This document shows positions 15,153-61,708 of a stretch of 64,000 nucleotides of DNA, piece after piece. The position numbers and the translations under genes were made by a program. Below the pieces are notes generated by a model. It was not told the DNA's origin, did no database searches, and was given only the letters and a program-made list of their open reading frames with translations. How positions within the stretch are numbered: position 1 is the first letter of the stretch; each line of letters begins with the position of its first letter. Source of the DNA: Gonocerus acuteangulatus (lineage: Eukaryota; Arthropoda; Insecta; Hemiptera; Coreidae); assembly GCA_946811695.1 (NCBI GenBank), contig OX328131.1:14155289-14219288 (forward strand), in the 5' to 3' direction.

Positions 15153-15188
15153 CTGAAGATGGCTCGTAATTTATGCCGAAACGTTGGC
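15153..15188 (+). ncRNA. Hammerhead-ribozyme-like motif
   Basis: Core CTGAAGA, short hairpin stem GGC...GCC, then GAAACGTTGG. The conserved strands match the hammerhead catalytic core (CUGANGA and GAAA). Such minimal motifs are known from Penelope-like retroelements. Activity is not shown by sequence. Confidence 0.45.
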
Positions 15189-15240
15189 AAAAAGATCTTA
15201 CCCATTCTGGTCATAAAATGTATTATTATTCATAGATGAC

Positions 15241-17050
15241 CGAAACACCGGTCATATACAACTTCTCAATATGAACGGTCGACTGCCTCTACACTACAAT
15301 TGGATTACTACTGAGTCGCACAGAATCACGCTCTTCTACAATATACCGTCTTCCAAGGCATTCAAGTTTTTCATGAAATGTCGACAAACAAAAAAATATT
15401 AACTATTTCTAGAACTAGTTTCCAAAGGACTCTAGGTATAACAATTAAAACGCCCTAAAATGACGAAGTTCCTGCAGATAAGACTTTTCAAATTATTAAT
15501 CCAATTGTTTGTATATATAAATGGTTATGGATACAACGAAACTTATACTTAAGTATAACTTATACTTATTGCATTGGTTACAGTTGGTATAAGTATACTC
15601 CCAAGGGGGTGTGGTTACGTTTTCCTCTAGTAACCTTACAGAAATGTATAGAAGTTGGGAACCATTCGTAGGCAGAAGCAGCGAGATTTTAACGAGTAAA
15701 CTTTCTTCAACAATTCCTCTATTAATTATGTAATTCAGTAACTCGTCAAACAACTTGATAACGAACAGACTTAGCAACTTCCTACCAACAGCAAATTTAT
15801 ATTTACCGCACGAATTCATATTTTCACTTAGTCTCTCTCAATTAAATTATCATAAAATATGAGTGGAAATTAAGTAAAAATGTATTTAGGGTGAATATAT
15901 ATACATATATATCATTGTTTTGACAACATTACCTTCAATATGCCAACGAACATTGCAAAATACATACACGATCGCCAATAATCAGCAGTCCTTAAATTTC
16001 ATAATATTATAACTGCTACATCCGACGTTCTTTATTTGCTTTAAGGTTCTAACCGCACTGCTCGCCTCTTATTTAGTTCAAACTGTAATCCCATGCTTGC
16101 AATTGTACCCGTAACCCTGCATCGGGTGCAATGGTTCTATTGGTACGGGTGGATGGTTTTTAAGGTACCTCCCATCCTGTCCCTCAACGCAAGGTACTCC
16201 TCCCCCAGTACCTTTCTAGGTCGGTACCGTCTACACGGCATCACACTTTAATAGCCTGTAAGATTGCTAGGGAAGTGGATACAGCGCCGCCGTCCCAATG
16301 GGACCATTGCGCCTGATCCCGTCACAAATATTGAAGTTTGTGAATTTTCTTTAAAATATTATTTTCTCATTATTTGGGTAATTTAAACGGCACTTGCAAA
16401 GCCATTTACTGATGTAATCGGGATACGCTGTTTGGTGAATTATTTTATTATGATAAGCGAAGAAAGTAGTTCTTTTCTTATACAGATGTTTCACAAAATG
16501 CCAGAAAATATTTTATTTTACCATCACAGTAATGGGAGGTTGAGTTGGTTGTTATTCCAGTGTATGTTCGAGGGCTTATAGAGCTGAAACAGAAAATATG
16601 TTTATTGGTAATGATAATTGGCTACCATTTACCAAACCTTTCTTTTAATTTCATGATTTTGACTGTGGGCGATTAGTATACATCCACAGAGAGTAATTAT
16701 GTACTGGTTTGGGTGATAGAGCTCTCTGAGAGAGGTGAAAAGTCTGAAAATAAACATAATGTCCTTTGCGATTTCACAAAATCAGTGCTTTTACTATTTA
16801 TTTTTTCGCATTGAGCTGATTCATCTACTAGCAACACTTTAAATTTTATTCCATTTCTTAGATGCCTACGAATGTTCTCAAATTGTTTAGGCCTTAAAAT
16901 GCATGTGGGAATTCTTTAAGGGCAAAAAATGTTGGCCGTCCTGTTAGGACGGTTGCGCCAGATTACGCTACTCCGGGAATGCGCCTGATCCAGGGTTAAC
17001 CGCCACAGGACTATTACTAGACAGTAACTGAACAGGACATATGGACTCCT
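15241..17050. other. Unassigned intergenic or intronic DNA with two GC-richer blocks
   Basis: 16090-16325 and 16930-17010 are richer in G and C and each contains a small hairpin followed by the same word: ccgtcccaatgggaccattg with gcgcctgatcc, and cgtcctgttaggacggttgc with gcgcctgatcc. They look like two fragments of one repeat. No coding signal was seen in the rest; the minus-strand frame at 15496-15819 has no known domain. Confidence 0.35.
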
Positions 17051-17052
17051 AC

Positions 17053-17940
17053 GGCTATTGAGTCCTTCACTAAGACTCAAACGCAGAACAAACTCATTAT
17101 ATACAAAACTATCACCAGACCCATTAGGACGTACTTAATTGAATTGTGGGGAACAACCAAAACTTCAAAAAGTTAATGCCCCTTTCTACGTTTCCAATAA
17201 AGCCCTTCATAATGACCTCAACGTTCGTCCAATAACTGGCAAAATTCCTACTCCTAACTGATAGACTTCTTCCAAAGTCCTTGCTTTCTCGGTGATGCCC
17301 ACCCAGTCACCGAGAAAATAGAATAGTTCTGGCTCGACTACGAATTGGACATACTCTACTAACACAGGAATACTTAATGACAAGACGTAACAGACCAATA
17401 TGTGACATATGTAACTGCGAACTTACAGTCAAACATTTACTGACAGACTGCCGCAGAAGAAACGATATTAATCTGCCGTATGATATGCAAGAACTGTTTG
17501 GCAATGATAGCCAGTATTGACATACCTCAGTAAGGGTGCGTTTACACTAGGATAGTTATTGCAGGATATTTAGATCAGAGAGAAATTCTGACTAATGGAA
17601 ACCATGTAGAATTTATGTCAGACAGAAATTTTACATGGTTTACATTAGTCAGAATTTCTCTCTGATATAAATGTCCTGCAATAACTATCCTAGTGTAAAC
17701 GCACCCTTACACAGGACTGTACGACCTCATTTGATGATCTTAAGCGTGTTGTCTTGAAAACATTAAGTTCCTATGAACTTTAAGTGATATTTTCATTTAA
17801 ACCCCTATCTCGCCACCTTAACACATACATTTAAACACATACAATCAAACAAGTTGGTTTCCTAGTGAGACTAAGTTCAGAAGATGCTGCTCACTGTGTT
17901 ATCGCCAAGAAGCGGAACACTGATAAATTTAAATAAATAA
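17053..17940 (+). pseudogene. Jockey/I-like LINE ORF2 C-terminus and 3' UTR, split by a MITE
   Basis: Successive frames encode the C-terminal reverse transcriptase/connection segment (KLIIYKTITRPIRTYLIELW), then FYVSNKALHNDLNVRPITG, then RLRIGHTLLTQEYLMTRRNR and the zinc knuckle CDICNCELTVKHLLTDC (C-x2-C-x7-H-x4-C). After the MITE at 17530-17710 the frame resumes as TTSFDDLKRVVLKTLSSYEL and a stop. The 3' UTR ends gataaatttaaataaataat. Frameshifts make it a dead copy. LINE ORF2 normally copies its own RNA at nicked DNA. Confidence 0.75.
17530..17710. mobile_element. 181-bp MITE (near-perfect palindrome)
   Basis: Ends gtaagggtgcgtttacacta and its exact complement; the arms of about 85 bp run almost to the centre (gagagaaattctgactaatg / cattagtcagaatttctctc). 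It is inserted in the LINE C-terminal frame, which can be read on both sides. Confidence 0.85.
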
Positions 17941-18026
17941 TTTTGTTTTATTATAATTAGTAATTATTTTTTATCTTTTTTTTCCCCTTTATTAATAATC
18001 TAATGGATTCCTTTAATCTGTTGCAG

Positions 18027-18227
18027 CTTACCTTCGATACCTTCACCGTTGGGAAGTTTGTATCCTTTACAACAGAAGGCTGCCCGGATGGCTACATGTC
18101 CATCCAGGAATCCGAGAGGCCTCTGACGGGAGGGCAGTGGTGTGGATCAGCTTGGGGGTACACTGTATATTACTCGGAAACCAGGAGTCTCAACCTAACA
18201 CTAAGGCTGGACAGGCTTTCAGAACAG
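18027..18227 (+). CDS. Internal exon of a CUB-domain protein gene (C-terminal half of a CUB domain)
   Basis: The exon is 201 nt, exactly 67 codons, bounded by a pyrimidine-rich acceptor ending ttgcag and a donor gtaggg; both borders are phase 0. It encodes LTFDTFTVGKF...SEQ, including a Cys-containing FTTEGCPDGYM segment, a WCG motif, and YYSETRSLNLTLRLDRL. The pattern Cys ... CG ... Y-S-E-T, then alternating hydrophobics, is the second half of a CUB domain, a disulfide-bonded beta-sandwich of secreted or cell-surface proteins. Codon use and GC content differ sharply from the AT-rich surroundings. The exon continues in frame into 55887-56017, whose GIGYNFDFKLAYKF completes the final strands. 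CUB proteins mediate extracellular protein-protein contacts; the specific ligand and gene name are not recognisable. Earlier exons lie left of the window. Confidence 0.85.
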
Positions 18228-18267
18228 GTAGGGATACTGTAATAATTATAGAAGGATTTAGCTTATT

Positions 18268-18670
18268 GCAATAGTATTTCTGAAGTTACACAGCTCAAAA
18301 TAAAACTCTGCTGAAAATGTGTCACTCTTGCTCAAGTAGGGGGCATAGATTGAACACAGGAAGATAGATAGATATGGATTTTGAGGCTCTACTACTAGAT
18401 TATTTGCGCCCTCCAATATATTGGTTAGAAAAGGTTTGGGTTCTGTTTTACAAATGTTTGACTTAGATATTTTAAATAAATTTTGAGACGTCTGATACGA
18501 GATCCTACGTAGAACACAGGAAGAGTGACGCACGTACCCTCTGGTGTACATGCTCTAAAGCTAGGTACATACAGTTTTGATTGGTAATAAGGAGATATTT
18601 ACTATGTCTTTCATAGTCATGACTAAAAAACACTGACTTTTGAGTTATGTCACTTTAAAAATACTAGTGC
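18268..18670. mobile_element. MITE with ends g-c-a-c-t-a-g-t-a-t-t-t (copy 1, with extra segment)
   Basis: Terminal inverted repeats gcaatagtatttctgaagtt and its partner ending taaaaatactagtgc, about 31 bp. Compared with copy 2 at 23398-23639 it has about 160 bp more, bounded by direct repeats gaacacagg at 18352 and 18512. It lies 40 bp into the intron after the first CUB exon. Confidence 0.7.
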
Positions 18671-18894
18671 GATATGCACAAGTCATTGTTCAGAATGAAA
18701 TAATAATTCTATCCATTAGTCAATATCCATTATTAAGAATGAAATAATAATCCTACTCATTAGTCATTATTCATTATTCTAAATAATTATTGCCCAACAC
18801 TGACGCGGAAGATGAGATTAAATTATCATTTTACTCACACCCTCCATAACACAGGGTTCATCTCGGAATTTTATATTCTTGTTCGAGCCCTAAG

Positions 18895-18957
18895 GGGGCA
18901 AGGTTAGCTCAGCGGTAGAGCACTCGACTCATATGCTGGAGGACCTGAGTTCAAATT
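18895..18957 (+). pseudogene. tRNA pseudogene or SINE head (tRNA-Met-like)
   Basis: ggttagctcagcggtagagc is a good D-arm/A box, ctCATat fits an anticodon loop, and gacctgagttcaaa is T-arm/B-box-like. The anticodon stem is poorly paired and the 3' acceptor strand is replaced by poly-T, so it is not a functional tRNA. Confidence 0.55.
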
Positions 18958-21836: not shown

Positions 21837-21865
21837 GTTTCGCACCCTTATTGGTGCCTCTTCAG
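21837..21865 (-). ncRNA. Hammerhead-ribozyme-like motif
   Basis: On the minus strand CTGAAGA, stem GCACC...GGGTGC, GAAAC. The mirror copy on the plus strand is at 22022-22050. Confidence 0.45.
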
Positions 21866-22021: not shown

Positions 22022-22050
22022 CTGAAGAGGCACCAAAAAGGGTGCGAAAC
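22022..22050 (+). ncRNA. Hammerhead-ribozyme-like motif
   Basis: CTGAAGA, stem GCACC...GGGTGC, GAAACATGTAG. It is the inverted partner of 21837-21865, followed by atgtagg as in the motif at 36163. Confidence 0.45.
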
Positions 22051-22082
22051 ATGTAGGGAAGATAAATAAAAGTGTAAAATAC

Positions 22083-22266
22083 GAAGACAGGTATAGTTGG
22101 GATTCGGCTAGGAGAAAAACGTCAGACTTTCAAAAAGAGATCTGTATTTTGGACGTTTCGACTGCAACAATGGCAGCCTTCAGTCGAAACGTCCAAAATA
22201 CAGATCAATTTTTGAAAGTCTGACGTTTTTCTCCTAGCCGAATCCCAACTATACCTGTCTTCGTAT
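22083..22266. mobile_element. Inner palindrome related to the 46.3-kb repeat
   Basis: Arms acgaagacaggtatagttgg, then gattcggctaggag, and their complements surround ggacgtttcgactgcaacaa / cagtcgaaacgtcc. The gattcggcta...ggacgttt order also occurs at 46318-46375. It is inserted in the right arm of the outer foldback. Confidence 0.7.
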
Positions 22267-22477
22267 CTCTACAGCGGCTAACTACCTCCATCTACACTAA
22301 AAGTGTAAAAGTGTGTGGCGATATTTTATTGACCTTCCGCCTTATTCGCCAGTTATATATATTTGAGCTAAGGGTCATTTAATGAATAATCCACAAATAA
22401 GACATTGAATATTTCATCAATTGTAATAATTGTGTCTTGACGAGACAGACAACAAACCATCAGAAATTATATGGAAC

Positions 22478-26439: not shown

Positions 26440-29085
26440 GACAGATCATAATAGGAGATTATTAGGACAGATAATCCAACTATACTATTGGTCTGCCGAG
26501 CGCAGAAACAGACAGATAGTCTCTGCCAACTATAATACTGGTCTACAAACAGCAAAAATAGTCAGATAATCTCTGCCGACTATCCTAATTGTCCTGCAGG
26601 AGCAAAGATAGCCGGATAATTTCTGGCAAATATCCTAATCGTGTAGTAGGAGCAAAGATAACCGGATGATCTCTGCCGACTAGCCTAACTGTCTGGCAGG
26701 AGCAAAGATAGCTGGGTAATTTCTGCCAAATATCCTAATCGTCTGTCAGGAGCAAAGATAACCGGATAATCTCTGTTGACTATCCTAGTCGTCTAGTAGG
26801 AGCAAAGATAACCGGATAATTTCTGCCGACTATCCTAATCGTCTTCCACGAGCAGAGATGGACAAATGATCTTTGCCGACTATCCTAATCGTCTGTCAGG
26901 AGCAAAGATAGCCGGATAATCCCTGCTGACTACCCCAATTGTCTGCCAAGAAAAGAGATATGCAGATAATCTCTTCCAACTATCTTAATCGTCTACCAAA
27001 AGAAGCGATAGGCAGATAATCTCTTCCAACTATCCTAATAGTCTGCCAAGAAAAGAGATATGCAGATAATCTCTTCCAATTATCTTAATCGTCTACCAAA
27101 AGAAGCGATAGGCAGATAATCTCTTCCAACTATCCTAATAGTCTGCCAAGAAAAGAGATATGCAGATAATCTCTTCCAACTATCTTAATCGTCTACCAAA
27201 AGAAGCGATAGGCAGATAATCTCTTCCAACTATCCTAATAGTCTGCCAAGAAAAGCGATAGGCAGATAATCTCTTCCAACTATCCTAATAGTCTGCCAAG
27301 AAAAGAGATATGCAGATAATCTCTTCCAACTATCTTAATCGTCTACCAAAAGAAGAGATAGGCAGATGATCTCTTCCAACTATCCTAATAGTCTGCCAAG
27401 AAAAGAGATATGCAGATAATCTCTTCCAACTATCTTAATCGTCTACCAAAAGAAGAGATAGGCAGATGATCTCTTCCAACTATCCTAATAGTCTGCCAAG
27501 AAAAGAGATATGCAGATAATCTCTTCCAACTATCTTAGTCGTCTACCAAAAGAAGAGATAGGCAGATAATCTCTTCCAACTATCCTAATAGTCTGCCAAG
27601 AAAAGAGATATGTAGATAATCTCTTCCAACTATCTTAATCGTCTACCAAAAGAAGCGATAGGCAGATAATCTCTTCCAACTATCCTAATAGTCTGCCAAG
27701 AAAAGAGATATGCAGATAATCTCTTCCAACTATCTTAATCGTCTACCAAAAGAAGAGATAGGCAGATGATCTCTTCCAACTATCCTAATAGTCTGCCAAG
27801 AAAAGAGATATGTAGATAATCTCTTCCAACTATCTTAATCGTTTACCAAAAGAAGCGATAGGCAGATAACCTCTTCCAACTATCCTAATAGTCTGCCAAG
27901 AAAAGAGATATGCAGATAATCTCTTGCAATTATCTTAATCGTCTACCAAAAGAAGCGATAGGCAGATAATCTCTTCCAACTATCCTAATAGTCTGCCAAG
28001 AAAAGAGATATGCAGATAATCTCTTCCAACTATCTTAATCGTCTACCAAAAGAAGCGATAGGCAGATAATCTCTTCCAACTATCCTAATAGTCTGCCAAG
28101 AAAAGCGATAGGCAGATAATCTCTTCCAACTATCCTAATAGTCTGCCAAGAAAAGAGATATGCAGATAATCTCTTCCAACTATCTTAATCGTCTACCAAA
28201 AGAAGAGATAGGCAGATGATCTCTTCCAACTATCCTAATAGTCTGCCAAGAAAAGAGATATGCAGATAATCTCTTCCAACTATCTTAATCGTCTACCAAA
28301 AGAAGAGATAGGCAGATGATCTCTTCCAACTATCCTAATAGTCTGCCAAGAAAAGAGATATGCAGATAATCTCTTCCAACTATCTTAATCGTCTACCAAA
28401 AGAAGAGATAGGCAGATAATCTCTTCCAACTATCCTAATAGTCTGCCAAGAAAAGAGATATGTAGATAATCTCTTCCAACTATCTTAATCGTCTACCAAA
28501 AGAAGCGATAGGCAGATAATCTCTTCCAACTATCCTAATAGTCTGCCAAGAAAAGAGATATGCAGATAATCTCTTCCAACTATCTTAATCGTCTACCAAA
28601 AGAAGAGATAGGCAGATGATCTCTTCCAACTATCCTAATAGTCTGCCAAGAAAAGAGATATGTAGATAATCTCTTCCAACTATCTTAATCGTTTACCAAA
28701 AGAAGCGATAGGCAGATAACCTCTTCCAACTATCCTAATAGTCTGCCAAGAAAAGAGATATGCAGATAATCTCTTCCAATTATCTTAATCGTCTACCTAA
28801 AGAAGCGATAGGCAGGTAATCTCTTCCAACTATCCTAATAGTCTGCCAAGAAAAGAGATATGCAGATAATCTCTTCCAAATATCTTAATCGTCTACCAAA
28901 AGAAGCGATAGGCAGATAATCTCTTCCAACTATCCTAATAGTCTGCCAAGAAAAGAGATATGCAGATAATCTCTTCCAACTATCTTAATCGTCTACCAAA
29001 AGAAGAGATAGGCAGATAATCTCTTCCAACTATCCTAATAGTCTGCCAAGAAAAGAGATAGGCAGATAATCTCTTCAAACTATTC
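26440..29085 (+). repeat. 50-bp minisatellite with 100-bp dimer structure
   Basis: About 53 units of 50 bp with core gcagataatctcttccaact. Units alternate between two types (gtctgccaagaaaagagata and gtctaccaaaagaagcgata), giving a 100-bp dimer. Units at the left edge (26440-26940) are diverged; the rest are nearly identical. Rare variants recur exactly 850 bp apart (gtttaccaaa at 27841 and 28691; the aaaagcgata dimer break near 27251 and 28101), indicating an 850-bp segmental duplication. No reading frame persists. Confidence 0.95.
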
Positions 29086-29339
29086 TAAAAGAAGAAATAA
29101 ATATACTTTCTCAAGAAAAATGAATGTTCTCTTATATAATACCAGTATGAAAGTTTAGTAATCGTACTAAGGCTTATGTTCGCCAGTAATATTAATTGTA
29201 CTAAGGCTTAAATGAGTTTATGTTCGCTACTAATATACAGGGTGAATAGCAAGATAATATCAATATTATTTAAGGGGTAAAACTAGACACAGAATGTGGT
29301 TCATCGCCACTAACCACACGTCTCCATCTCACTCTCGAG
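29086..29339. other. Unassigned DNA
   Basis: No recognised feature; a short direct repeat actaaggctta at 29168 and 29199. Confidence 0.3.
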
Positions 29340-31311: not shown

Positions 31312-32284
31312 CAGTACTCTCCCTAATCCGGCAAAGTCGGGACCGGGGTACAGTCGGATTAGAGAAAACGCCGGATTAGCGAATTCACTTAGAAGCGGCC
31401 TATTACGTCTTTGAAAAACCTTAATATATTTGAGGATACAATAATATTCACCATTTTTAATATTGCATTTTTAAGTAAAATTTAGGTACCAAATTATAAA
31501 TTAAAATTCAAAATATGTAAATCCTTGCTGTATCATTATTTACAAGTGCATATGCATGTGAAAGTTTCAAGGATTAAATATATGTTGATAGTTAAACTAA
31601 ATAAAACATATTTAATTACTGACTAAATCAACTATGTATGGAATCCATACTATGGATATATTGTTACAATATCAAACAGCAGAAATTACGACCGGTATGA
31701 GTATATTAGGAATTTGGGTCCGGAGTAAACCCCCCCTTCTAATGAACCGATTTAGTTTCTTTTTACAACACATATTTACCTGTAGATTACCACTACGAAT
31801 ACCGAGTTTCGTCGAAATATACCAAAAATCACGGCTGGTAGTGGCAAATTGGTATTGTGGGTCCGGAGTAAACCCCCCCCCCTTCTAATGAACCGATTTA
31901 GTTTATTTTTACAACACATATTTAACTGTAGATTACCACTACGAATACCGAGTTTCGTCGAAATATACCAAAAATCACGGCTGGCAGTGGCGAATTGGTA
32001 TTGTGGGTCCGGAGTAAACCCCCCCTTCTAATGAACCGATTTAGTTCATTTTTATATCTCACTTTTCTGCCTATATTACCACTACGAATACCAAGTTTCG
32101 TTGAAATATAACAAATATTACGGCTGCCATAGTCAAATTAGTGTTTCGGGTTCGGGGTAAACCCCCCCTTCCGGCGGACCGACTCTGGTGGTTAACGAAC
32201 TCGTTCAATCGTTTGCTAATTGAATGCTATATACCAAGTTTCGTGACGAAAAAACAAAAACTCTGGCCGCTATCGTGTTAACAG

Positions 32285-35934: not shown

Positions 35935-36745
35935 GTCCAGTCAACGAATAGTTATAGATGGAAATTTTTTGAACAAAATTTTTGACTTCGTAACTTTGTT
36001 TGGGCTGGATAGGAGGTGAACATATCAAAAGACCTCTCCCCTAGCCTATTTGCCGGGGGGAGGGGGGTTTAGAAGGTCCCATACGGAGTACGGTACGTGG
36101 CCCTACCTATGGAAGGTCTTCCGTAGCTAAGGCTAAATTTATGTATACTGATTAAGTTGCTCCTGAAGAGGCGTCAAGAGACGCGAAACATGTAGAGAAT
36201 AAAATAAACTAAGGCATATAAAGTGAAGTGGATGTAGTTTTATATATGTATGACCTTCCGCCTATTCAAATAATATATTGAAAGAAAAAAGGGTCACAAT
36301 TTTATAATAGTAAAAATATATATATTCTTGAAGAGAATGTAATGTACTATAAACCAATAAACGGCATTTATTTTTTGGGTTTATTGTTAAAGAGTTATCC
36401 GGCCAAAAAGAGCAAAAAGTGTGTTTTTTCTCAAAATGACAGACATTCAAGAGCGGATATTTCGAAAACTAAAGATATATGGAAAAACGTTATAGAGTTG
36501 AACTTGTAGCATATTTAATCAGCATTCATTTGTTATAGAATAGTCATGTCTCTAGGACCCACGGTTTCCGAGATATAAGTGAAAACCCGAAAAATGGGGC
36601 CTTCTAAACCCCCCTCCCCCAGGCACAAAGGCTACGGGCGAGGACTTCTGATATTTTGACCTACTAACAGCCGAAACAAAGTTATGAAGTCAAAAATTGT
36701 GTTCCAAACATTTTCATCTATAAATCTTAGTTACCTGGCGGTAAT
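35935..36745. mobile_element. Foldback element with purine/C-tract arms
   Basis: Left arm atagatggaaattttttgaa, aatttttgacttcgtaactt, then ggggaggggggtttagaagg. It is inverted on the right from ccttctaaacccccctcccc to aaacattttcatctat. The loop between the arms holds a hammerhead-like motif (36163-36189). Confidence 0.7.
36163..36189 (+). ncRNA. Hammerhead-ribozyme-like motif
   Basis: CTGAAGA, stem GCGTC-aaga-GACGC (5 bp perfect), GAAAC, followed by atgtaga. Same core as 22022-22050 with a different but fully complementary stem. Confidence 0.5.
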
Positions 36746-36954
36746 TCTTTATTTTTATTTTTTTTTATATAGAACCGCAATTTCTAAATAGTAATTTGGT
36801 TGCAAGGGTAAAAGTCCGACTCGCAGGAACTGCCTCATCTTAGCGCGGTTCCGTTCTTATCCCTAGTCTAATTTCGAAAGATTAAAATAGAAGCAGTTAT
36901 TATTTTGTTGAGAGGAGATCGTTGACCGTTGATGATGCAAGGTAGGGATTGCCC

Positions 36955-37079
36955 GGGTTCGGTCACTGCTACTTAATAATACATACCCCATATGTGTATG
37001 TATGTGGGCATATATATGTACATATGTGTGCGTGTATATGTGTATGTGTATATGCATATATATAAATATATATATATTA

Positions 37080-37119: not shown

Positions 37120-37277
37120 AGGTATATTTACATAGATATGTGCATATATTAGTGTTAAATATGTCCTACTTGTATTTACAGCACTGATGAAGGCTTGAAG
37201 TTCAAGCCGAAACGTCGGCACAATAAAACCATTTTTACGATAAAATGTAGTTTTATTAAGTAGCAGTGACCGAACCC
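36955..37277. mobile_element. Penelope-like terminal fragment with inverted ends
   Basis: gttcggtcactgctacttaa at the left is inverted at 37253-37277 (ttaagtagcagtgaccgaac). The right part carries the hammerhead-like motif 37184-37216, then ggcacaataaaaccattttt. Inverted and tandem terminal repeats plus hammerhead motifs are features described for Penelope-like elements. Confidence 0.45.
37184..37216 (+). ncRNA. Hammerhead-ribozyme-like motif (best example)
   Basis: CTGATGA, stem GGCTTGAA / TTCAAGCC (perfect), GAAACGTC. All conserved residues of both core strands are present. Located in a Penelope-like fragment. Confidence 0.55.
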
Positions 37278-41316: not shown

Positions 41317-44300
41317 AATAAATCTAAATACAACTGGGTAACCCAAATTAAACAAATCTTTAACGGTGATTTTCAAAATATCTGGTTAACCCAAAATTCA
41401 AATATTATTGAGAACAATCTAAAGGCGATAACAACTAAATACAAAGACAATCTAATAAAAAATGATTTGTCTAAAAACAAAACTCAAACTTCAGCTGTTT
41501 CTATAAAAATCTTTCAATAATTCCCGGTGTTCCTCAAAACTATATGCTACTAGACATACCATTCCCCATTCTCAAAATAATTATCCAACACACAACATCC
41601 AGCAAATATGCCATAAAATTCTCATCCAAGTCCATCAAATACACCATCAACCCCAGACTCTTGTGCACTCTATGTAATAGTACAGCTGAAGAAACCATAT
41701 ACCACATCCTACTCTACTGTCCTGCTTATGACAACATCCGACAAACACTACACCATCAACCCCAGACTCTTGTGCACTCTATGTAATAATACAGCTGAAG
41801 AAACCATATACCACATCCTACTCTACTGTCGTGCTTATGACAACATCCGACAAACACTACACCATCAACCCCAGACTCTTGTGCACTCTATGTAATAATA
41901 CAGCTGAAGAAACCATATACCACATCCTACTCTACTGTCGTGCTTATGACAACATCCGACAAACACTACACCATCAACCCCAGACTCTTGTGCACTCTAT
42001 GTAATAATACAGCTGAAGAAACCATATACCACATCCTACTCTACTGTCGTGCTTATGACAACATCCGACAAACACTACACCATCAACCCCAGACTCTTGT
42101 GCACTCTATGTAATAATACAGCTGAAGAAACCATATACCACATCCTACTCTACTGTCCTGCTTATGACAACATCCGACAAACACTACACCATCAACCCCA
42201 GACTCTTGTGCACTCTATGTAATAATACAGCTGAAGAAACCATATACCACATCCTACTCTACTGTCCTGCTTATGACAACATCCGACAAACACTACACCA
42301 TCAACCCCAGACTCTTGTGCACTCTATGTAATAGTACAGCTCAATAAACCATATACCACATCCTACTCTACTGTCGTGCTTATGACAACATCCGACAAAC
42401 ACTACACCATCAACCCTAGACTCTTGTGCACTCTATGTAATAATACAGCTGAAGAAACCATATACCACATCCTACTCTACTGTCCTGCTTATGACAACAT
42501 CCGACAAACACTACACCATCAACCCCAGACTCTTGTGTACTCTATGTAATAATACAGCTGAAGAAACCATATACCACATCCTACTCTACTGTCCTGCTTA
42601 TGACAACATCCGACAAACACTACACCATCAACCCTAGACTGTTGTGTACTCTATGTAATAATACAGCTGAAGAAACCATATACCACATCCTACTCTACTG
42701 TCCTGCTTATGACAACATCCGACAAACACTACACCATCAACCCCAGACTCTTGTGTACTCTATGTAATAATACAGCTGAAGAAACCATATACCACATCCT
42801 ACTCTACTGTCCTGCTTATGACAACATCCGACAAACACTACACCATCAACCCTAGACTCTTGTGTACTCTATGTAATAATACAGCTGAAGAAACCATATA
42901 CCACATCCTACTCTACTGTCCTGCTTATGACAACATCCGACAAACACTACACCATCAACCCCAGACTCTTGTGCACTCTATGTAATAATACAGCTGAAGA
43001 AACCATATACCACATCCTACTCTACTGTCCTGCTTATGACAACATCCGACAAACACTACACCATCAACCCTAGACTCTTGTGCACTCTATTAATAATACA
43101 GCTGAAGAAACCATATACCACATCCTACTCTACTGTCCTGCTTATGACAACATCCGACAAACACTACACCATCAACCCCAGACTCTTGTGTACTCTATGT
43201 AATAATACAGCTGAAGAAACCATATACCACATCCTACTCTACTGTCCTGATTATGACAACATCCGACAAACACTACACCATCAACCCTAGACTCTTGTGT
43301 ACTCTATGTAATAATACAGCTCAATAAACCATATACCACATCCTACTCTACTGTCGTGCTTATGACAACATCCGACAAACACTACACCATCAACCCCAGA
43401 CTCTTGTGTACTCTATGTAATAATACAGCTGAAGAAACCATATACCACATCCTACTCTACTGTCCTGCTTATGACAACATCCGACAAACACTACACCATC
43501 AACCCTAGACTCTTGTGCACTCTATGTAATAATACAGCTGAAGAAACCATATACCACATCCTACTCTACTGTCCTGCTTATGACAACATCCGACAAACAC
43601 TACACCATCAACCCCAGACTCTTGTGTACTCTATGTAATAATACAGCTGAAGAAACCATATACCACATCCTACTCTACTGTCCTGCTTATGACAACATCC
43701 GACAAACACTACACCATCAACCCTAGACTCTTGTGTACTCTATGTAATAATACAGCTCAATAAACCATATACCACATCCTACTCTACTGTCGTGCTTATG
43801 ACAACATCCGACAAACACTACACCATCAACCCCAGACTCTTGTGTACTCTATGTAATAATACAGCTGAAGAAACCATATACCACATCCTACTCTACTGTC
43901 CTGCTTATGACAACATCCGACAAACACTACACCATCAACCCTAGACTCTTGTGCACTCTATGTAATAATACAGCTGAAGAAACCATATACCACATCCTAC
44001 TCTACTGTCCTGCTTATGACAACATCCGACAAACACTACACCATCAACCCCAGACTCTTGTGTACTCTATGTAATAATACAGCTGAAGAAACCATATACC
44101 ACATCCTACTCTACTGTCCTGCTTATGACAACATCCGACAAACACTACACCATCAACCCTAGACTCTTGTGTACTCTATGTAATAATACAGCTCAATAAA
44201 CCATATACCACATCCTACTCTACTGTCGTGCTTATGACAACATCCGACAAACACTACACCATCAACCCCAGACTCTTGTGTACTCTATGTAATAATACAG

Positions 44301-44721
44301 CTGAAGAAACCATATACCACATCCTACTCTACTGTCCTGCTTATGACAACATCCGACAAACACTACACCATCAACCCTAGACTCTTGTATACTCTATGTA
44401 ATAATACAGCTGAAGAAACCATATACCACATCCTACTCTACTGTCCTGCTTATGACAACATCCGACAAACACTACACCGTCAACCCCAGACTCTTGTGCA
44501 CTCTATGTAATAGTACAGCTGAAGAAACCATATACCACATCCTACTCTACTGTCCTGCTTATGACAACATCCGACAACCATTATTCCCATCTACCATTCC
44601 ACCCACTGAAGAGAATACATTTCTTGCAATTCTCAGTAGTAATAGCATAGAACCGTTTGTCAGATTTGCCAGCTATATTTTGAAGATCTTACAACTAAGG
44701 TCAGAAATACTGAAAGATTAA
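41315..44721 (+). pseudogene. LINE ORF2 C-terminus containing an amplified internal segment
   Basis: It starts as NKSKYNWVTQIKQIFNGDFQ, NIWLTQNSNIIENNLK, and then, after a stop at 41518, the overlapping frame gives FSSKSIKYTINPRLLCTLCN and STAEETIYHILLYCPAYDNI. The zinc knuckle is CTLCNSTAEETIYHILLYC (C-x2-C-x9-H-x4-C). After the 109-bp array the last unit continues normally into PLFPSTIPPTEENTFLAILS, then SYILKILQLRSEILKD and the stop at 44721. A 3' UTR with aaataaagaataat follows. The array destroys the frame because 109 is not a multiple of 3. Confidence 0.8.
41643..44578 (+). repeat. 109-bp tandem array derived from LINE zinc-knuckle coding sequence
   Basis: About 27 units. The landmark gacaacatccgacaa first occurs at 41730 and last at 44563, 26 intervals of 109 bp less a single 1-nt deletion (near 43090). 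Variants gtgcactc/gtgtactc, ccccagac/ccctagac and ctgaagaaacc/ctcaataaacc alternate. The ctcaataaacc variant is at 42341, 43321, 43757 and 44193, the last three exactly 436 bp (4 units) apart: a young four-unit higher-order repeat. Confidence 0.95.
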
Positions 44722-46150: not shown

Positions 46151-47298
46151 TCCGACTCGCAGGAACTGCATAATCTTAGCGCGGTTCCGTTCTTATCTCT
46201 AGACTCATTTAAAATTATTAAAATAGAAGCTGTTATTATTTTGGGTCCACATTTCTAGAAAGCATGAAGATTAGATAGTTAGCCGTCGAGGTGATAAGTA
46301 AAGATGGAATGGCTGGGATTCGGCTAAAGAAACCTCAATACGATTTTTGTTAAAAAATCTATATTTAGGACGTTTTGGCTACTCATTGGTAGCCTTCGTC
46401 AGCAATGAAAGTGCCGGGAGGCAGAGGAGGACCAACGTTGACAGTTCCATCTTTACTTTCAAGAAAGGTCTTATTTACGATCTTACCTGGATACCCATCC
46501 AGGGTATCCAGCCCTAGGAAGGACCCCGCTAGGCATTTGAAAAGCTATCTATCTCTAAGATTAAATTGTTTTTCTTATTTTTCTTAACCTGATTTATTAT
46601 CAAATACATTATCCAACTACAAGCAGTTAAAAAATAATAAGGAATAAAAACAGACAAAAAGAAAAGTTCGAATAAGCGAAATCAATTACTTTAAAGTTTT
46701 AAGCACTTATTTCTCCGATTGACATCGTCTAATCAAAACTTTTATTAGAACCATTTTTTTAGAGAATTTAGTAAGCTTTCTAATGGTATTCTTCCGTTTA
46801 CGAAGATTCTCAACCTTTTTCGAGATATTAAGGAAAGTATACAAAGTTACCAAAACTTTTTATGTCTGTTAATAAAATATTTTATTCTGACCCTTCCTTA
46901 ACTCCAAACGTAACGTAAATTTCAACATATAAGTTTTAATGAAAGTAGAACATGCAGAACATTTTTCAACTGAATCCCATGATTCTAAGTACCTAAACCA
47001 AAAACGGTATTCAAAAACTATTTTTCCAATTTTCTCGAAAACGGTTAAAGCTATCGCCTTGAAAATGGTTTCATTCGTTTTCCTAGCCCAAGAAGCCTAT
47101 AAAACGAGTACTTACAAGCTTATGAACTCAAAAACGTAAGCGTTACGATTTTTTCTGCGCGAATTTCGCCCCAAACGCCATCTTCCAGTGGGCGGATTTT
47201 GCTGGTTAACGAACTTGACCTTCCAAATTGGACGATGGATTTTTGTACCAAATTTCATCAAAATCGGACCATCAGGGAAGCCAGAAATGAGCGAACAG

Positions 47299-52020: not shown

Positions 52021-54620
52021 GTTTTATGACGTTCTTGCACAATAATTGAGAGACATATTTTGTACTATTTTAGAAACATTGGTTTTGGATCAATTGGTTT
52101 TATGACGTTCTTGCACAATAATTGAGAGACATCTTTTGTACTATTTTAGAAACATTGGTTTTGGATCAATTGGTTTTATGACGTTCTTGCACAATAATTG
52201 AGAGACATCTTTTGTACTATTTTAGAAACATTGGTTTTGGATCAATTGGTTTTATGACGTTCTTGCACAATAATTGAGAGACATCTTTTGTACTATTTTA
52301 GAAACATTGGTTTTGGATCAATTGGTTTTATGACGTTCTTGCACAATAATTGAGAGACATCTTTTGTACTATTTTAGAAACATTGGTTTTGGATCAATTG
52401 GTTTTATGACGTTCTTGCACAATAATTGAGAGACATCTTTTGTACTATTTTAGAAACATTGGTTTTGGATCAATTGGTTTTATGACGTTCTTGCACAATA
52501 ATTGAGAGACATCTTTTGTACTATTTTAGAAACATTGGTTTTGGATCAATTGGTTTTATGACGTTCTTGCACAATAATTGAGAGACATCTTTTGTACTAT
52601 TTTAGAAACATTGGTTTTGGATCAATTGGTTTTATGACGTTCTTGCACAATAATTGAGAGACATCTTTTGTACTATTTTAGAAACATTGGTTTTGGATCA
52701 ATTGGTTTTATGACGTTCTTGCACAATAATTGAGAGACATCTTTTGTACTATTTTAGAAACATTGGTTTTGGATCAATTGGTTTTATGACGTTCTTGCAC
52801 AATAATTGAGAGACATCTTTTGTACTATTTTAGAAACATTGGTTTTGGATCAATTGGTTTTATGACGTTCTTGCACAATAATTGAGAGACATCTTTTGTA
52901 CTATTTTAGAAACATTGGTTTTGGATCAATTGGTTTTATGACGTTCTTGCACAATAATTGAGAGACATCTTTTGTACTATTTTAGAAACATTGGTTTTGG
53001 ATCAATTGGTTTTATGACGTTCTTGCACAATAATTGAGAGACATCTTTTGTACTATTTTAGAAACATTGGTTTTGGATCAATTGGTTTTATGACGTTCTT
53101 GCACAATAATTGAGAGACATCTTTTGTACTATTTTAGAAACATTGGTTTTGGATCAATTGGTTTTATGACGTTCTTGCACAATAATTGAGAGACATCTTT
53201 TGTACTATTTTAGAAACATTGGTTTTGGATCAATTGGTTTTATGACGTTCTTGCACAATAATTGAGAGACATCTTTTGTACTATTTTAGAAACATTGGTT
53301 TTGGATCAATTGGTTTTATGACGTTCTTGCACAATAATTGAGAGACATCTTTTGTACTATTTTAGAAACATTGGTTTTGGATCAATTGGTTTTATGACGT
53401 TCTTGCACAATAATTGAGAGACATCTTTTGTACTATTTTAGAAACATTGGTTTTGGATCAATTGGTTTTATGACGTTCTTGCACAATAATTGAGAGACAT
53501 CTTTTGTACTATTTTAGAAACATTGGTTTTGGATCAATTGGTTTTATGACGTTCTTGCACAATAATTGAGAGACATCTTTTGTACTATTTTAGAAATATT
53601 GGTTTTGTATCAATTGGTTTTATGACGTTCTTGCACAATAATTGAGAGACATCTTTTGTACTATTTTAGAAATATTGGTTTTGGATCAATTGGTTTTATG
53701 ACGTTCTTGCACAATAATTGAGAGACATCTTTTGTACTATTTTAGAAATATTGGTTTTGGATCAATTGGTTTTATGACGTTCTTGCACAATAATTGAGAG
53801 ACATCTTTTGTACTATTTTAGAAACATTGGTTTTGGATCAATTGGTTTTATGACGTTCTTGCACAATAATTGAGAGACATCTTTTGTACTATTTTAGAAA
53901 CATTGGTTTTGGATCAATTGGTTTTATGACGTTCTTGCACAATAATTGAGAGACATCTTTTGTACTATTTTAGAAACATTGGTTTTGGATCAATTGGTTT
54001 TATGACGTTCTTGCACAATAATTGAGAGACATCTTTTGTACTATTTTAGAAATATTGGTTTTGTATCAATTGGTTTTATGACGTTCTTGCACAATAATTG
54101 AGAGACATCTTTTGTACTATTTTAGAAATATTGGTTTTGTATCAATTGGTTTTATGACGTTCTTGCACAATAATTGAGAGACATCTTTTGTACTATTTTA
54201 GAAATATTGGTTTTGGATCAATTAGTTTTATGACGTTCTTGCACAATAATTGAGAGACATCTTTTGTACTATTTTAGAAATATTGGTTTTGGATCAATTA
54301 GTTTTATGACGTTCTTGCACAATAATTGAGAGACATCTTTTGTACTATTTTAGAAATATTGGTTTTGGATCAATTGGTTTTATGACGTTCTTGCACAATA
54401 ATTGAGAGACATCTTTTGTACTATTTTAGAAATATTGGTTTTGGATCAATTGGTTTTATGACGTTCTTGCCCAATAATTGAGAGACATCTTTTGTACTAT
54501 TTTAGAAACATTGGTTTTGGATCAATTAGTTTTATGGCGTTCTTGCACAATAATTGAGAGACATCTTTTGTACTATTTTAGAAATATTGGTTTTGGATCA
54601 ATTAGTTTTATGACGTTCTT
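52021..54620 (+). repeat. 76-bp minisatellite, 34 complete units
   Basis: Unit gttttatgacgttcttgcac, aataattgagagacatcttt, tgtactattttagaaacatt, ggttttggatcaattg. The unit start at 52021 and the last at 54605 are exactly 34 x 76 bp apart. Units are almost identical up to about 53590; aaacatt/aaatatt, ttggatc/ttgtatc and aattggt/aattagt variants cluster towards the right end. Confidence 0.97.
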
Positions 54621-54900: not shown

Positions 54901-54949
<49 letters not shown>

Positions 54950-54950
<1 letters not shown>

Positions 54951-56505: not shown

Positions 56506-56509
56506 CATT

Positions 56510-56755: not shown

Positions 56756-56766
56756 TTAAATTGTTA

Positions 56767-57885: not shown

Positions 57886-58925
57886 ATAATAAGTGTAAAT
57901 ATTATTATATAATATTAAATTACATTAGTACCTATATATTTACATTACGTATATATGCATATTAAAGATGCATATGTATATATAGATATTAAAGATTCAA
58001 ATATGTACAGTTAAATTTAGCACTGACAGACCGTAACATTTCTGAAAACATGTATGAGTTAACTTCAAGTGTACTAGTGGACACAGTGCTGAAACCTTTG
58101 AGAGCTATTGTAGCTTAAAATGTGAAAATCTTTTAAAAAAATATCCGTATACACGTATACATATATATATATATATTTATATATATTATCTACTCCCTAG
58201 GAACAATTTTCCACAAAACCTTAAAAAATTTCAGTGATCTTTCATTTACTATGACCTAAAAGTATTTCCTACCTCAAACATTCACAAATATCAAATCGCT
58301 ACATGTGCGAGCTCTTAATGTAGGTAAATAAATAAATTTTACATATTTTTTTTTTTTTATTCGAGAATTTACATGACCGTTTTCCAGGAAGGTAAGCATA
58401 TTAATTTGCATTCTAAGCGAACCTTCCAGGTAGAGCAATTATGATAATGATTGTAAAATATTACACAGCGGACAGGATAATTAGGTTATTATGAATGTAG
58501 TTTATATTAAAGAGACAAGAGCACTAAGAAAGCAAAGCATCCTCAGGAGGGCTTAAGAGAGTCTGCTTGTGCCTCAAGACGTGTACCCAGTAATCCCGGC
58601 CTCATTGATATGCAGGTGGGCCTCAGATAATCTGGCTAGGCTATAGGCCTCACATTATACAACTAATGGATCATGGGGGCCTCTTTCTTGCTTGCAACTA
58701 TAGGCTACTTTAGGATACAGATTTTAATCATTGACCTGCATAGAAAAGCTATCAAGAAAAAAATGCCTAAACAGTGATTTTCCACTAAAGGGTACTCATT
58801 TCCGTAAAAATAATGTCATTTGAGAAAATAATAAGATACATTTACTGATTTCTCATTCATAAATTGCGCATATACTGTGTATCCTCAATCATTTATGGGT
58901 TGCCCTCAAGACGCAATGCATGCAG

Positions 58926-58928
<3 letters not shown>
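57886..58928. other. No recognised feature
   Basis: AT-rich intronic DNA with small (AT)n tracts near 58160. No gene. Confidence 0.35.
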
Positions 58929-58988
<60 letters not shown>

Positions 58989-58989
<1 letters not shown>

Positions 58990-61168
58990 GTAAACTCCCG
59001 ATAATCCGCGGAATTGACTGGCGCGGCACCCGCGGATTAGGCGATCCCGCGGACAACACGCAAAAATTCTAAAATGGAGACATACAACACAGGGATGTTA
59101 CTGGAAAATGTTTGTTTAGTAATATTAAAATGTGAAATATGAAAATATAATATGAAAAAACAATAAATATGAAAATAATTCAAATTAAACATATTTACGT
59201 AATACACATACATGTACAATTTACTTTTTCAGAAAAAATCCGTTAAAAGTGTTTGTTGTTTTGAAGCAAAACATCTCTTCTTGACTTGATTCTGAAGTTT
59301 TTTCAACACCATTTTATCACACAGTGATGCATCATCTTGTTCTTCCAGATATTGAATTAGTCCATTAACGTGTATTAGGGCTTCGTCATGACTTACTTTC
59401 TTTTTGGTCTTATCCTCCTCTTCTTCCTCACTCTCCTCTAATTCAATACCTGATACTCTATCTATTATTTGTTCATCAGTAAGATGTTCGAATCCTGGAT
59501 CACTGGCATCGCAATTAATCCACTCAACAATATTTCTTTCATCGACATCACTTCCTCCAGCAACTGATTTCGCTAAATTTGCTAAATCATTAGCAGAAAC
59601 TTCCTCTTCTTTATCTGAAGGCTCTACTGAAGTATTTTCTACATTTGGTAAAATTTTCCTCCAGGACTTTACCAACGTAGTTTGTTTTACTGACTCCCAA
59701 GCAGTGTTTATGTCATAAATGCTGTCGAGAATGGTATAATCTTTCCAGAAACCCTGAAGATCATTACCCTCTTCAATCCTTTTTTTTAACAAGTTGGTTC
59801 TATTTTTTTTTTTTTTTTTTTTTCATCAAAGCAATTACTCCCTGGTCCATTGGTTGGATAAGAGCAGTGACATTTGGAGGCAGAAAACTGACGAAAAAAT
59901 TTCCACAGTCCGATAGTAAAATATTTTTCGATGGGTGTGACGGGGCGTTGTCAATAAGCAGCATGGCTGTTTGGGGTAGGTTTCTTGCTTTTAAATGTTA
60001 TTTCACTTGAGGGATGACTTTTTTATGAAACCACTCTTTAAAAATTTGTTGGTCCATTCAGCCTTTCTTCTGATTAAAATAATGTACTGGTGGTGTTGCA
60101 TTGCTGCATGTCATTATAGTAATGCGCTCTTTACTGGACTTATGGCCTGGAGCTTGCCTCTCGCTATTAAATGCCAGTGTTCGCGTTGGCAAACATTTCC
60201 ATAGCAGCCCTGATTCGTCAGCGTTATACAGCTGTTCGTAACAAATTCCTTCTGACTGAAGGAGCTGTTCAAACTCTGTTTTAAAATTTTCTGCTGCCTG
60301 CTGGTCGTTACTTAATTTCTCGCCGTAAAGTCCGATTTCCCTTATCCCTTGGCGCTGTTTAAACCTCGTCAACCACCCTGATGATGCATTAAATGTTCCC
60401 TCTAAACCTAGCATTACAAAAAACTGTTTAGCTTTTTCAGCAACAATAGGCCCAGAAACAGGAGTTCCCTCACTTCTCAACTGACTTACCCATTCCAACA
60501 GTGCAGCATCTAGCTCTTCATAAGTGCTCCTTCTCATGGTTTTTCTTTTCTTCATCGATGAAGAGTTGTCTGATGAGGTTGCAAATTGCAATAATTTATC
60601 TTTTTGCTTAAAAATCTCTCGAACAGTTGTTTCTCCTATTCCATATTGCAAACAAATTTGCTTCCTAGATTCGCCATTTTCGAGTTTTTTTATTAATTCG
60701 AGTTTCTCTTGAATCGATAAAAACACTTTTTTCCTTTTATCGGTCATTGTTAAATAAAATAACGACAAACTTTGACGATAACTACTGTCAGTAATTCAAA
60801 CACACGAGCGAAATGAACTACTAGACGGCAATGCGACAGAAACTAAACTGATATGAGAAGAGTTTGGAAATGAAAATTAGATTCTGATCTTATTAGAAAA
60901 TTATATGGAAAAAGGAAGGATGAGGTAAGATGTTTCTGAGAAAAAAAGACTAATGCATTCTCAGGCAACACCTGGATAATTTGATTAAAGAGAATTGAAT
61001 CTTTCTATTTAATGTGTTTCCTCTCTACTACAGTTCCTTAAGACCTAACTCTTCAAACTTATTCTGTATAAAAACTTTTCTTATTCAAACATTAAAAAAA
61101 AAAAATCCATGGATGAGCGCGGAATAGCCGCAAAGCGGAATATCCGCCCGCGGATTATCGAGAGTTTA

Positions 61169-61171
<3 letters not shown>
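58989..61171 (-). mobile_element. Tigger/pogo DNA transposon, nearly full length
   Basis: Inverted ends: left cgtaaactcccgataatccg (cgg), right ccgcggattatcgagagttt, actg. Flanked by TA inside an (AT)n tract on both sides. Second internal copies (cccgcggattaggcgatccc; gccgcaaagcggaatatccg) lie just inside. 2183 bp, carrying one transposase frame on the minus strand with a few disruptions. Confidence 0.88.
59229..60768 (-). pseudogene. Tigger-type (pogo family) transposase, frameshifted
   Basis: 236 codons from about 60768 (ATG at 60747 is the better start: MTDKRKKVFLSIQEKLELIK). The CENP-B-type HTH (ENGESRKQICLQYGIGETTV), then a second HTH (LLEWVSQLRSEGTPVSGPIV, GWLTRFKQRQGI), then the first catalytic region with YNADESGLLWKCLP. 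A frameshift near 60058 follows. In the next frame NLPQTAMLLIDNAPSHPSKN (second catalytic Asp) and VSFLPPNVTALIQPMDQGVI are intact. A poly-T tract (59798-59823) breaks the frame again. The last 187 codons (DYTILDSIYDINTAWESV, then an acidic EESEEEEED run) complete the usual Tigger C-terminus. Nearly all of the family's length is present; it cuts and pastes at TA when intact. Inactive here. Confidence 0.88.
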
Positions 61172-61220
<49 letters not shown>

Positions 61221-61225
<5 letters not shown>

Positions 61226-61473
61226 AATATTTATTTTTATTTATTAGAAGATCCACATACATTATTATTATAAACTCTCAACTTAACAATACACATGGTC
61301 AACTTAACAATTGAACTCGATTACCCTCGTTATTTAAGCTTGAAAACATCAAGCCTAGTTGGTGTGAGACGTAAACAATAACAATAATACATTACATTGT
61401 ATTTTAATAAATACAATTAAAAAATATAAATGCATATATTATATATATTATATATATATATATATATTATATA

Positions 61474-61510
<37 letters not shown>
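61221..61510. other. AT-rich intronic DNA and (AT)n tracts
   Basis: No gene; (AT)n runs from 61440 to 61517. Confidence 0.4.
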
Positions 61511-61517
<7 letters not shown>

Positions 61518-61521
<4 letters not shown>

Positions 61522-61678
61522 CTGATCGCCCTCTCACAGGCTCAAAAATGGTCCAATTTTGATGAAATTTAGTGCAAAAATCTTTCATCTAATTTGAAAG
61601 GTCAAGTTCGGTAACCAGCAGAATCCGTCAAGGGGAACACGGTTTTTGGAGCGAAACTCCATTCATTGTTTTACAGCC
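61518..61678 (-). mobile_element. Fragment of the family A/C repeat interior
   Basis: ggctcaaaaatggtccaatt and aggtcaagttcggtaaccag match 1265-1345, 33375-33455 and, inverted, 38395-38460. Confidence 0.5.
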
Positions 61679-61708
61679 CTGACGAAGGCTTTATTTGCAA
61701 GCCGAAAC
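61679..61708 (+). ncRNA. Hammerhead-ribozyme-like motif
   Basis: CTGACGA, stem GGCTT / AAGCC, GAAAC. It is followed by aaaccacatttccttataaa and gaccccgac-like words as in the Penelope-like fragment at 37216-37290. Confidence 0.5.

What the first reader, a model, noticed from the sequence alone, without database searches (positions are those of the whole stretch)
15153..61708. Dispersed hammerhead-ribozyme-like motifs with covarying stems
At least six sites share the core CTGA(A/T/C)GA, hairpin, (G)AAAC, yet have different hairpins that are still self-complementary: GCACC/GGGTGC (21837, 22022), GCGTC/GACGC (36163), GGCTTGAA/TTCAAGCC (37184), GGCTAC/GTAGCC (46371), GGCTT/AAGCC (61679), GGC/GCC (15153). 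Conserved single strands with compensated stems is what an RNA constraint looks like. Hammerhead cores (CUGANGA, GAAA) are known from Penelope-like retroelements, and two of the sites lie beside inverted terminal fragments. No Penelope reverse transcriptase is visible here, so either only ends are left or these are retrozyme-like non-autonomous units.
Basis: partly seen in the sequence, partly recalled or inferred. Interest (0 to 1): 0.8.

Follow-up and report, generated by a model that had tools for sequence, protein, structure and literature searches.

The report
Hammerhead motifs marking Penelope retrotransposon ends
The scattered hairpin motifs are small hammerhead-ribozyme-like RNA elements sitting at the ends of Penelope-like retrotransposons, a known association, and in this genome the paired ends of single insertions give a clue to how such elements copy themselves into DNA.

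Summary
In detail: 7 sites match the motif, against 0.72 expected in shuffled sequence, all with one extra base between CUGANGA and the hairpin. The genome holds 18,522 strict matches, reversed control none. [quoted passage not shown] Stem I, which played no part in choosing the sites, pairs best at the hammerhead position. Rfam hammerhead models do not hit; cleavage is untested. Neighbouring copies lie head-to-head, tails outward: 20 of 26 in a mixed list, 26 of 26 in one family. Of 35 such insertions with target-site duplications, 32 have one long and one short tail, none two long. I read this as two reverse-transcription starts, one per target strand, but 6 of the 35 are near-perfect palindromes, which fits self-priming as well. 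The motif class is already described; the counted long/short rule sharpens an open question.

The parts
15153..15182 (+). hammerhead-like motif, family-D type, decayed stem II (GGC/GCC)
15238..15280 (+). AC-rich tail stem-loop, arms GACCG / CGGTC (the minimum-energy fold of this decayed copy pairs differently)
21837..21865 (-). hammerhead-like motif, family A, left half of an inverted pair; stem I UCCC/GGGA
22022..22050 (+). hammerhead-like motif, family A, right half of the inverted pair; stem I UUCCC/GGGAA
22067..22079 (.). left target-site duplication TAAAAGTGTAAAA of a nested PLE insertion
22080..22297 (.). nested head-to-head PLE-derived insertion inside the 22022 copy: short tail on the minus arm, long tail on the plus arm (read by eye); minus-strand motif remnant at 22146-22191
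22298..22310 (.). right target-site duplication TAAAAGTGTAAAA
22667..22691 (+). degenerate family-B motif followed by a tail with GACCGAACCCCGAC
36163..36189 (+). hammerhead-like motif, family A variant: stem II GCGUC/GACGC, stem I CUC/GAG
36938..36983 (-). family-B tail without the motif, start of a full AC-rich stem-loop (GACCG/CGGTC, second arm just below 36938); lies inverted to the 37184 copy
37184..37213 (+). hammerhead-like motif, family B (stem II GGCUUGAA/UUCAAGCC); the sequence after its tail recurs in L037
46372..46402 (-). hammerhead-like motif, family C, G12 to A (AAAAC); upstream sequence is of the intron-free type
61679..61708 (+). hammerhead-like motif, family-B-like, decayed stem I and stem III

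Best explanation
The sites are minimal type-I hammerhead motifs of Penelope-like retrotransposons, left by several separate, mostly truncated insertions of at least five subfamilies (A-E). In a full-length unit the motif lies in the 5' UTR just after an inferred intron and about 140 nt before the ATG of the RT-GIY-YIG ORF; a second copy lies in the downstream pseudo-LTR. Next comes a tail with an AC-rich stem-loop in which reverse transcription starts, as in the lizard element PAc. Insertions make AT-rich target-site duplications. Both 3' DNA ends of the target are inferred to prime reverse transcription, one at a long start site (F) and one at a start site about 30 nt shorter (S), so that the two cDNAs meet head-to-head and the motifs face outward at both ends. 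The palindromic stem III suggests that the ribozyme acts as an RNA dimer. Shown by sequence: motif, covariation, PLE ORF, inverted pairs, duplications, long/short tail pairing. Inferred: dimer cleavage, splicing, and one start site per target strand (this last step I hold at about even odds).
For: Motif enrichment. Stem I at the hammerhead register: 26 contiguous pairs against 15.6 for swapped arms (p 0.016), and 12 or fewer at five other registers; stem I was not used to choose the 13 sequences. Stem II one base after the core: 50 contiguous pairs over 10 distinct arm pairs against 25.8 swapped, 0 of 20,000 as high, though the sites were found through this stem. 18,522 genome matches, reversed control 0. 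L040: direct copies at 2981 and 6111 flank an ORF whose first ATG is at 3121; its product (P0001) matches 42 of the 7,987 proteins scored, best 36% identity, 35 of the 42 annotated with RVT_1 and 6 with GIY-YIG; YVDD and VYIGET...RL..H motifs align. Head-to-head pairs 20 of 26 and 26 of 26. Duplications of 8 bp or more at 35 of 42 pairs against 21 of 980 for swapped partners. One F and one S end in 32 of these 35, against 16.8 expected from the same ends paired at random, 0 of 20,000 as high. The stem-loop and both start sites keep the same geometry in families B-E.
Against: No Rfam hammerhead family reaches E 10 on the window or on six well-preserved loci. The extra base between A9 and stem II is not canonical. 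In the window, stem I is 0-2 contiguous bp in 4 of 7 copies. A covariance model built here scores bacterial decoys, picked because they carry the core pattern, up to 31.7 bits against 55-61 for its own training sites, gives a tandem-repeat false match at 17.4 bits, and finds the held-out family-A copies only at 8-11 bits. P0001 itself has no Pfam hit. Swap tests ignore shared ancestry. Against two independent starts: 6 of 35 insertions are near-perfect palindromes with no middle left over, and L062 and L063 leave only 29 and 23 nt between arms of about 0.7 and 1.5 kb; equal arms suit self-priming better.
Confidence: 0.88

Rival explanations
1. Retrozymes: non-autonomous tandem repeats of 150-400 bp with canonical type-I hammerheads, spreading as circular RNA.
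For: Type-I hammerhead-like core, many copies without coding capacity.
Against: Window sites are not in the tandem arrays listed; close neighbours are mostly head-to-head, not head-to-tail; stem III is reduced to a palindrome; the motif flanks a PLE ORF in L040.
Confidence: 0.03
2. DNA transposon terminal inverted repeats: the outward-facing motifs would be transposase binding sites.
For: Inverted pairs with duplications look like terminal inverted repeats.
Against: Interiors differ in length from 113 bp to about 3.75 kb, most with arms of unequal length; the two ends differ by about 30 nt in 32 of 35; several interiors encode RT-like sequence.
Confidence: 0.02
3. The stem-loops are retained for protein binding or as an mRNA or splicing structure, and hammerhead catalysis is vestigial.
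For: The motif directly follows a 3' splice-like end in 93 of 94 tallied copies of the fetched loci; in PAc ribozyme mutants still insert in vitro (PMC11167929); stem I is weak in several copies.
Against: CUGANGA, GAAA, the NUH triplet (12 of 13 sequences) and the stem I register are kept; PAc RNA cleaves when its protein is present.
Confidence: 0.2
4. Head-to-head copies arise by self-priming or template jumping on antisense RNA or cDNA, not by priming from both target strands.
For: Proposed for Adineta PLEs with palindromic junctions (PMC3846280, passages). Here 6 of 35 duplicated insertions are near-perfect palindromes and two more leave under 30 nt between long arms.
Against: Duplications at both ends and the one-F-one-S pairing are simpler with two primed strands; most of the 35 have arms of unequal length.
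Confidence: 0.35

Closest known systems
[quoted passage not shown] Lunse, Weinberg and Breaker 2017; neither paper held, known from passages in reviews, and from recall)
   Same: Core, reduced stem III, PLE association, high copy number, dimer action (here inferred).
   Different: One extra base before stem II in the copies examined here; I could not check whether the published consensus has it. PMC10085705 (passage) says insertions of one or two bases there occur in known alignments.
PAc, Poseidon from Anolis carolinensis (PMC11167929, main text read)
   Same: Hammerhead upstream of an AC-rich stem-loop; two RT starts whose interval corresponds to the 30-40 bp tail; RT + C-terminal GIY-YIG ORF; AT-rich targets.
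   Different: The PAc ORF starts inside the ribozyme; here it starts about 140 nt downstream. In vitro PAc showed no strand difference in start site; here nearly every duplicated insertion has one of each.
Adineta vaga Penelope families (PMC3846280, passages)
   Same: Inverted pseudo-LTRs, 8-10 bp duplications, palindromic junctions, tail optionally on one of the inverted repeats.
   Different: Copy numbers there are very low; here the long/short tail pairing could be counted and is nearly strict.
Metazoan retrozymes (PMC7229834, passages)
   Same: Type-I hammerhead motif.
   Different: Tandem repeats with canonical loops and circular RNA; none seen here.

Membership tests
Minimal type-I hammerhead motif (PLE kind) | CUGANGA core | tested here: met
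   7 of 7 window sites; the scan required it
Minimal type-I hammerhead motif (PLE kind) | Stem II with GAAA after it, covarying between families | tested here: met
   6 of 7 window sites GAAAC, 46402 AAAAC; swap test 0 of 20,000, partly circular because a hairpin was required; enrichment over shuffles 7 to 0.72
Minimal type-I hammerhead motif (PLE kind) | Stem I at the expected register | tested here: met
   26 against 15.6 pairs, p 0.016, best of 6 registers over 13 sequences; weak or absent in 4 of 7 window copies
Minimal type-I hammerhead motif (PLE kind) | NUH cleavage triplet | tested here: met
   Position 17 is not G in 12 of 13 sequences
Minimal type-I hammerhead motif (PLE kind) | Diminished, self-complementary stem III | tested here: met
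   ACGU or ACAUGU in 12 of 13 sequences, 61679 decayed (read from the sequences typed)
Minimal type-I hammerhead motif (PLE kind) | Match to a curated hammerhead covariance model | tested here: not met
   No hammerhead family in Rfam at E up to 10 on the window and six loci
Minimal type-I hammerhead motif (PLE kind) | Self-cleavage | not testable with these tools
   Needs an RNA cleavage assay
Penelope-like element | ORF with RT and GIY-YIG endonuclease | tested here: met
   L040 P0001 by homologues and aligned motifs, no Pfam hit of its own; not found in the 115 window ORFs scanned
Penelope-like element | Pseudo-LTR in direct and inverted copies | tested here: met
   Direct 2981+/6111+ and inverted 1081- in L040
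Penelope-like element | Target-site duplication and 30-40 bp tail | tested here: met
   Duplication at 35 of 42 pairs; short ends mostly 25-35 nt short of the long end
Metazoan retrozyme | Tandem repeats of 150-400 bp with canonical hammerhead | tested here: not met

The most novel reading that the evidence does not exclude
In PLEs the hammerhead's palindromic, stem-III-poor form is kept mainly as an RNA dimerisation site: two template RNAs pair head-to-head, and the dimeric PLE protein copies one from start site F and the other from start site S, each primed by one strand of a staggered double-strand break. This single geometry would explain the unknown role of these ribozymes, the outward-facing inverted ends, and the rule of one long and one short tail per insertion. 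(Lowered from 0.13 after one search showed near-perfect palindromes among the insertions.)
Probability: 0.11. Interest if true: 0.78.

Novelty: new member of a known kind. Interest (0 to 1): 0.46.

Why it matters
PLE transposition is poorly understood, and a review calls the role of its hammerheads a mystery (PMC7761336, passages). A genome with about 18,500 strict copies lets the insertion products be counted: the head-to-head form with one long and one short tail is close to a rule in the sample, which points to a concerted, asymmetric insertion step and makes competing models testable in the published PAc system. The stem-loop module is also a practical marker for PLE ends that current Rfam models miss here.

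Tried and rejected
Rfam at gathering and at E up to 10 on the window, and at E up to 10 on six loci: no hammerhead. Pattern scans: viral contigs 0; bacterial and archaeal genomes 26 stretches, whose hairpins extend at most 3 bp beyond the forced GGC/GCC, so treated as chance or gene sequence. Pfam on 115 of 225 low-complexity-filtered ORFs of 60 aa or more: 35 of the 150 longest were left out by eye, mainly in tandem arrays, and the 75 shorter ones were not scanned; no RT core or GIY-YIG domain, three members with zf-RVT. A model built here (R1) separates weakly and is not used as proof. Which arm, F or S, is longer: no clear bias among the pairs that could be oriented (read by eye, about 6 to 4). 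I first took 46402 as evidence of repeated retrotransposition of spliced RNA; the 1,778 genome matches to its intron-free start may derive from few events, because 46402 and L044 share flanking sequence beyond the 44-nt exon, so that claim was dropped.

Rows dropped before counts. One search used 6 of the 17 distinct forms; left out were near copies of families B and C (L027, L028, L029, and L030, whose motif equals 37184), one degenerate C form (L041), and six forms with stems of 0-3 that look like chance. The pairs all come from the first 100 hits of two capped lists on one contig, and 27 of the 35 with duplications are family D or mostly so (26 D). The outer family-B pair of L054 was not scored. 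The long end F is zero by construction, because I cut the reference tails at the long end seen in the loci. For families C and E the script picked an AGCCG inside the hammerhead as first arm; the arm in the tail was read by eye. Three of the 35 duplications lie in AT microsatellites (L041, L046, L054) and prove little.

Paper searches for the long/short tail rule: (listing; PMC3846280 and PMC8969392 seen in passages, PMC11167929 main text) found the tail described as optional on one inverted pseudo-LTR; I saw no count of pairs. Lunse 2017, Cervera 2014, Craig 2021 and Arkhipova 2017 are not held, so earlier description cannot be excluded.
Full report
Observation. The scan of both strands finds seven sites with CTGANGA, a self-complementary hairpin and (G/A)AAAC: 15153+, 21865-, 22022+, 36163+, 37184+, 46402- and 61679+. 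One hundred dinucleotide shuffles give 0.72 on average, at most 3. Position 7 of CUGANGA varies (A, U, C), as in hammerheads, and in all seven exactly one base separates the core from stem II. Further remains lie at about 22667+, in a nested inverted pair at 22080-22297, and as a tail alone at 36938-36983 minus.

Is it a hammerhead? I assembled 13 sequences, the seven of the window and six of the 17 distinct forms found in loci of the same genome (the dropped forms are named in Tried and rejected). Reading stem II one base after the core gives 50 contiguous pairs over 10 distinct arm pairs; swapping arms gives 25.8 on average and never as many in 20,000 trials; the two neighbouring offsets give 4 and 7. 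This test is partly circular, because the sites were found through a hairpin or through GGC/GCC; the shuffles are the fairer control. Stem I was not used for choosing. The hammerhead fold predicts where it must lie, and pairing peaks exactly there: 26 contiguous pairs against 15.6 for swapped arms (p 0.016), and 12 or fewer at five other registers. Family A shows UUCCC/GGGAA and CUC/GAG; well-preserved B and D copies have GCC/GGC. The expected cleavage triplet ends in A, C or U in 12 of 13. Stem III is reduced to a palindrome, ACGU or ACAUGU, in 12 of 13, which can pair only between two molecules. None of these tests corrects for shared ancestry. Individual window copies are decayed: stem I is 0-2 contiguous pairs in four of seven and 46402 has lost G12. 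Rfam hammerhead models recognise neither the window copies nor the six well-preserved loci tried. A model built here was weak outside its training set: two held-out remnants reached 18.8 and 16.1 bits, but a tandem repeat 17.4, family A copies 8-11, and bacterial decoys chosen for the core pattern up to 31.7, against 55-61 for training sites.

Which element? The window is part of a 1.106-Gb genome with 9,370 + 9,152 strict matches and none for the reversed pattern. Twenty regions were fetched around all 20 divergent pairs among the first 100 listed hits. In L040 an 844-aa open frame, 821 aa from its first ATG at 3121, lies between two direct copies at 2981 and 6111. Its product matches 42 proteins at E 0.001 or better among 7,987 scored, best 36% identity; 35 of the 42 are annotated with RVT_1 and six with GIY-YIG. 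It has no Pfam hit itself, but YVDD and the motifs VYEV...VYIGET...RL..H align with homologues that have these domains. L042 (family B) gives RVT_1 directly. So the motif is the 5' UTR and pseudo-LTR hammerhead of PLEs with RT followed by GIY-YIG. In the 115 window ORFs scanned no such domain was found.

Anatomy. Upstream of the motif stands a splice-acceptor-like end, TTTTAG in families C and E and ACAGCC or a near variant in B and D, in 93 of 94 tallied copies. L040 also has a donor-like ATTG|GTATGT, giving an inferred intron of 271 nt, and two copies (46402 in the window, L044) have the upstream exon joined directly to the motif. Introns in PLEs are known (Arkhipova 2003, recalled); that the acceptor abuts the ribozyme I infer from sequence alone. 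Downstream come an AT-rich stretch and an AC-rich stem-loop with arms GACCG/CGGTC or AGCCG/CGGCT, two compensated pairs. In families B, C, D and E a short end (S) lies 8-10 nt before the second arm and a long end (F) 15-18 nt after it. [quoted passage not shown]

Insertion products. Among listed hits within 5 kb of each other, 20 of 26 are minus-then-plus; in the family-D list, 26 of 26. I classified the 20 pairs of the first list and the 22 further pairs of the family-D list, 42 in all. Thirty-five have a duplication of 8 bp or more at both ends; swapped partners give this in 21 of 980. In the 33 known the matched stretches are 10-17 bp apart from two in AT repeats, with 16% G+C against 35% for the loci. 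Of the 35, 32 have one F and one S end, two have F and an earlier stop, one (in an AT repeat) has two S ends, none has two F ends; random pairing of the same ends gives 16.8 mixed pairs and never 32 in 20,000. By family the 32 are 25 D, 3 C, 2 B and 2 E. The seven pairs without duplication are mixed: 2 FS, 2 SS, 1 F with other, 1 S with other, 1 other. The nested element in the window, with the 13-bp duplication TAAAAGTGTAAAA, also has one long and one short end, read by eye. Arm lengths: most of the 35 have unequal arms, but six leave no middle at all and two more leave 23 and 29 nt between arms of about 1.5 and 0.7 kb.

Mechanism. I read the ends as target-primed reverse transcription on both strands of a staggered break, one strand starting at F and the other at S, with the two cDNAs joining head-to-head. 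PAc protein extends both strands and is predicted to be a dimer, though in vitro its start site did not differ between strands. Adineta PLEs were described with a tail optionally on one inverted repeat, and self-priming on an antisense template was proposed for the head-to-head form (PMC3846280, passages). The palindromic stem III could supply the pairing of two template RNAs; that is my most novel reading and is untested.

Placement. PLE hammerheads lacking stem III are an established class (PMC7761336 and PMC7229834, passages; the two primary papers are not held). These are new members of it. What may be new is the counted F/S rule; the primary PLE literature could not be fully searched.

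Noticed in passing
window 41640-44577: About 27 tandem copies of a 109-bp unit. Three scanned ORFs match zf-RVT (members not named); by its translation this array is the likely source, i.e. a satellite apparently born from a LINE-type fragment.
   Followed up: partly
window 59232-60795 (-): Tigger/pogo-like transposase remains: CENP-B_N and Tc5-type DNA-binding domains in ORF 60061-60795, followed by ORF 59232-59822.
   Followed up: no
window 52021-54620 and 26475-29088: Two long satellites: 34 copies of a 76-bp unit at 99% matches, and a 100-bp-based array with higher-order periods of 150-300 bp.
   Followed up: no
window 10703-11290 and 31715-32171: What looks like the same 143-146 bp tandem unit (AGTAAACCCCCCC...) occurs at two places about 20 kb apart.
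   Followed up: no
window 46372-46402 and L044: Intron-free PLE copies with shared flanking sequence; the start TTTCATTG|CTGANGAAGGC has 911+867 genome matches. A PLE insertion may be hitch-hiking inside another repeat.
   Followed up: partly
L035, L039: Head-to-head pairs with no duplication whose flanks are themselves reverse complements, as if a larger palindrome had formed around the element.
   Followed up: no
L038, L045, L052, L055, L068, L075 (also L062, L063): Head-to-head insertions that are nearly perfect palindromes with arms of almost equal length, unlike the other duplicated pairs.
   Followed up: partly
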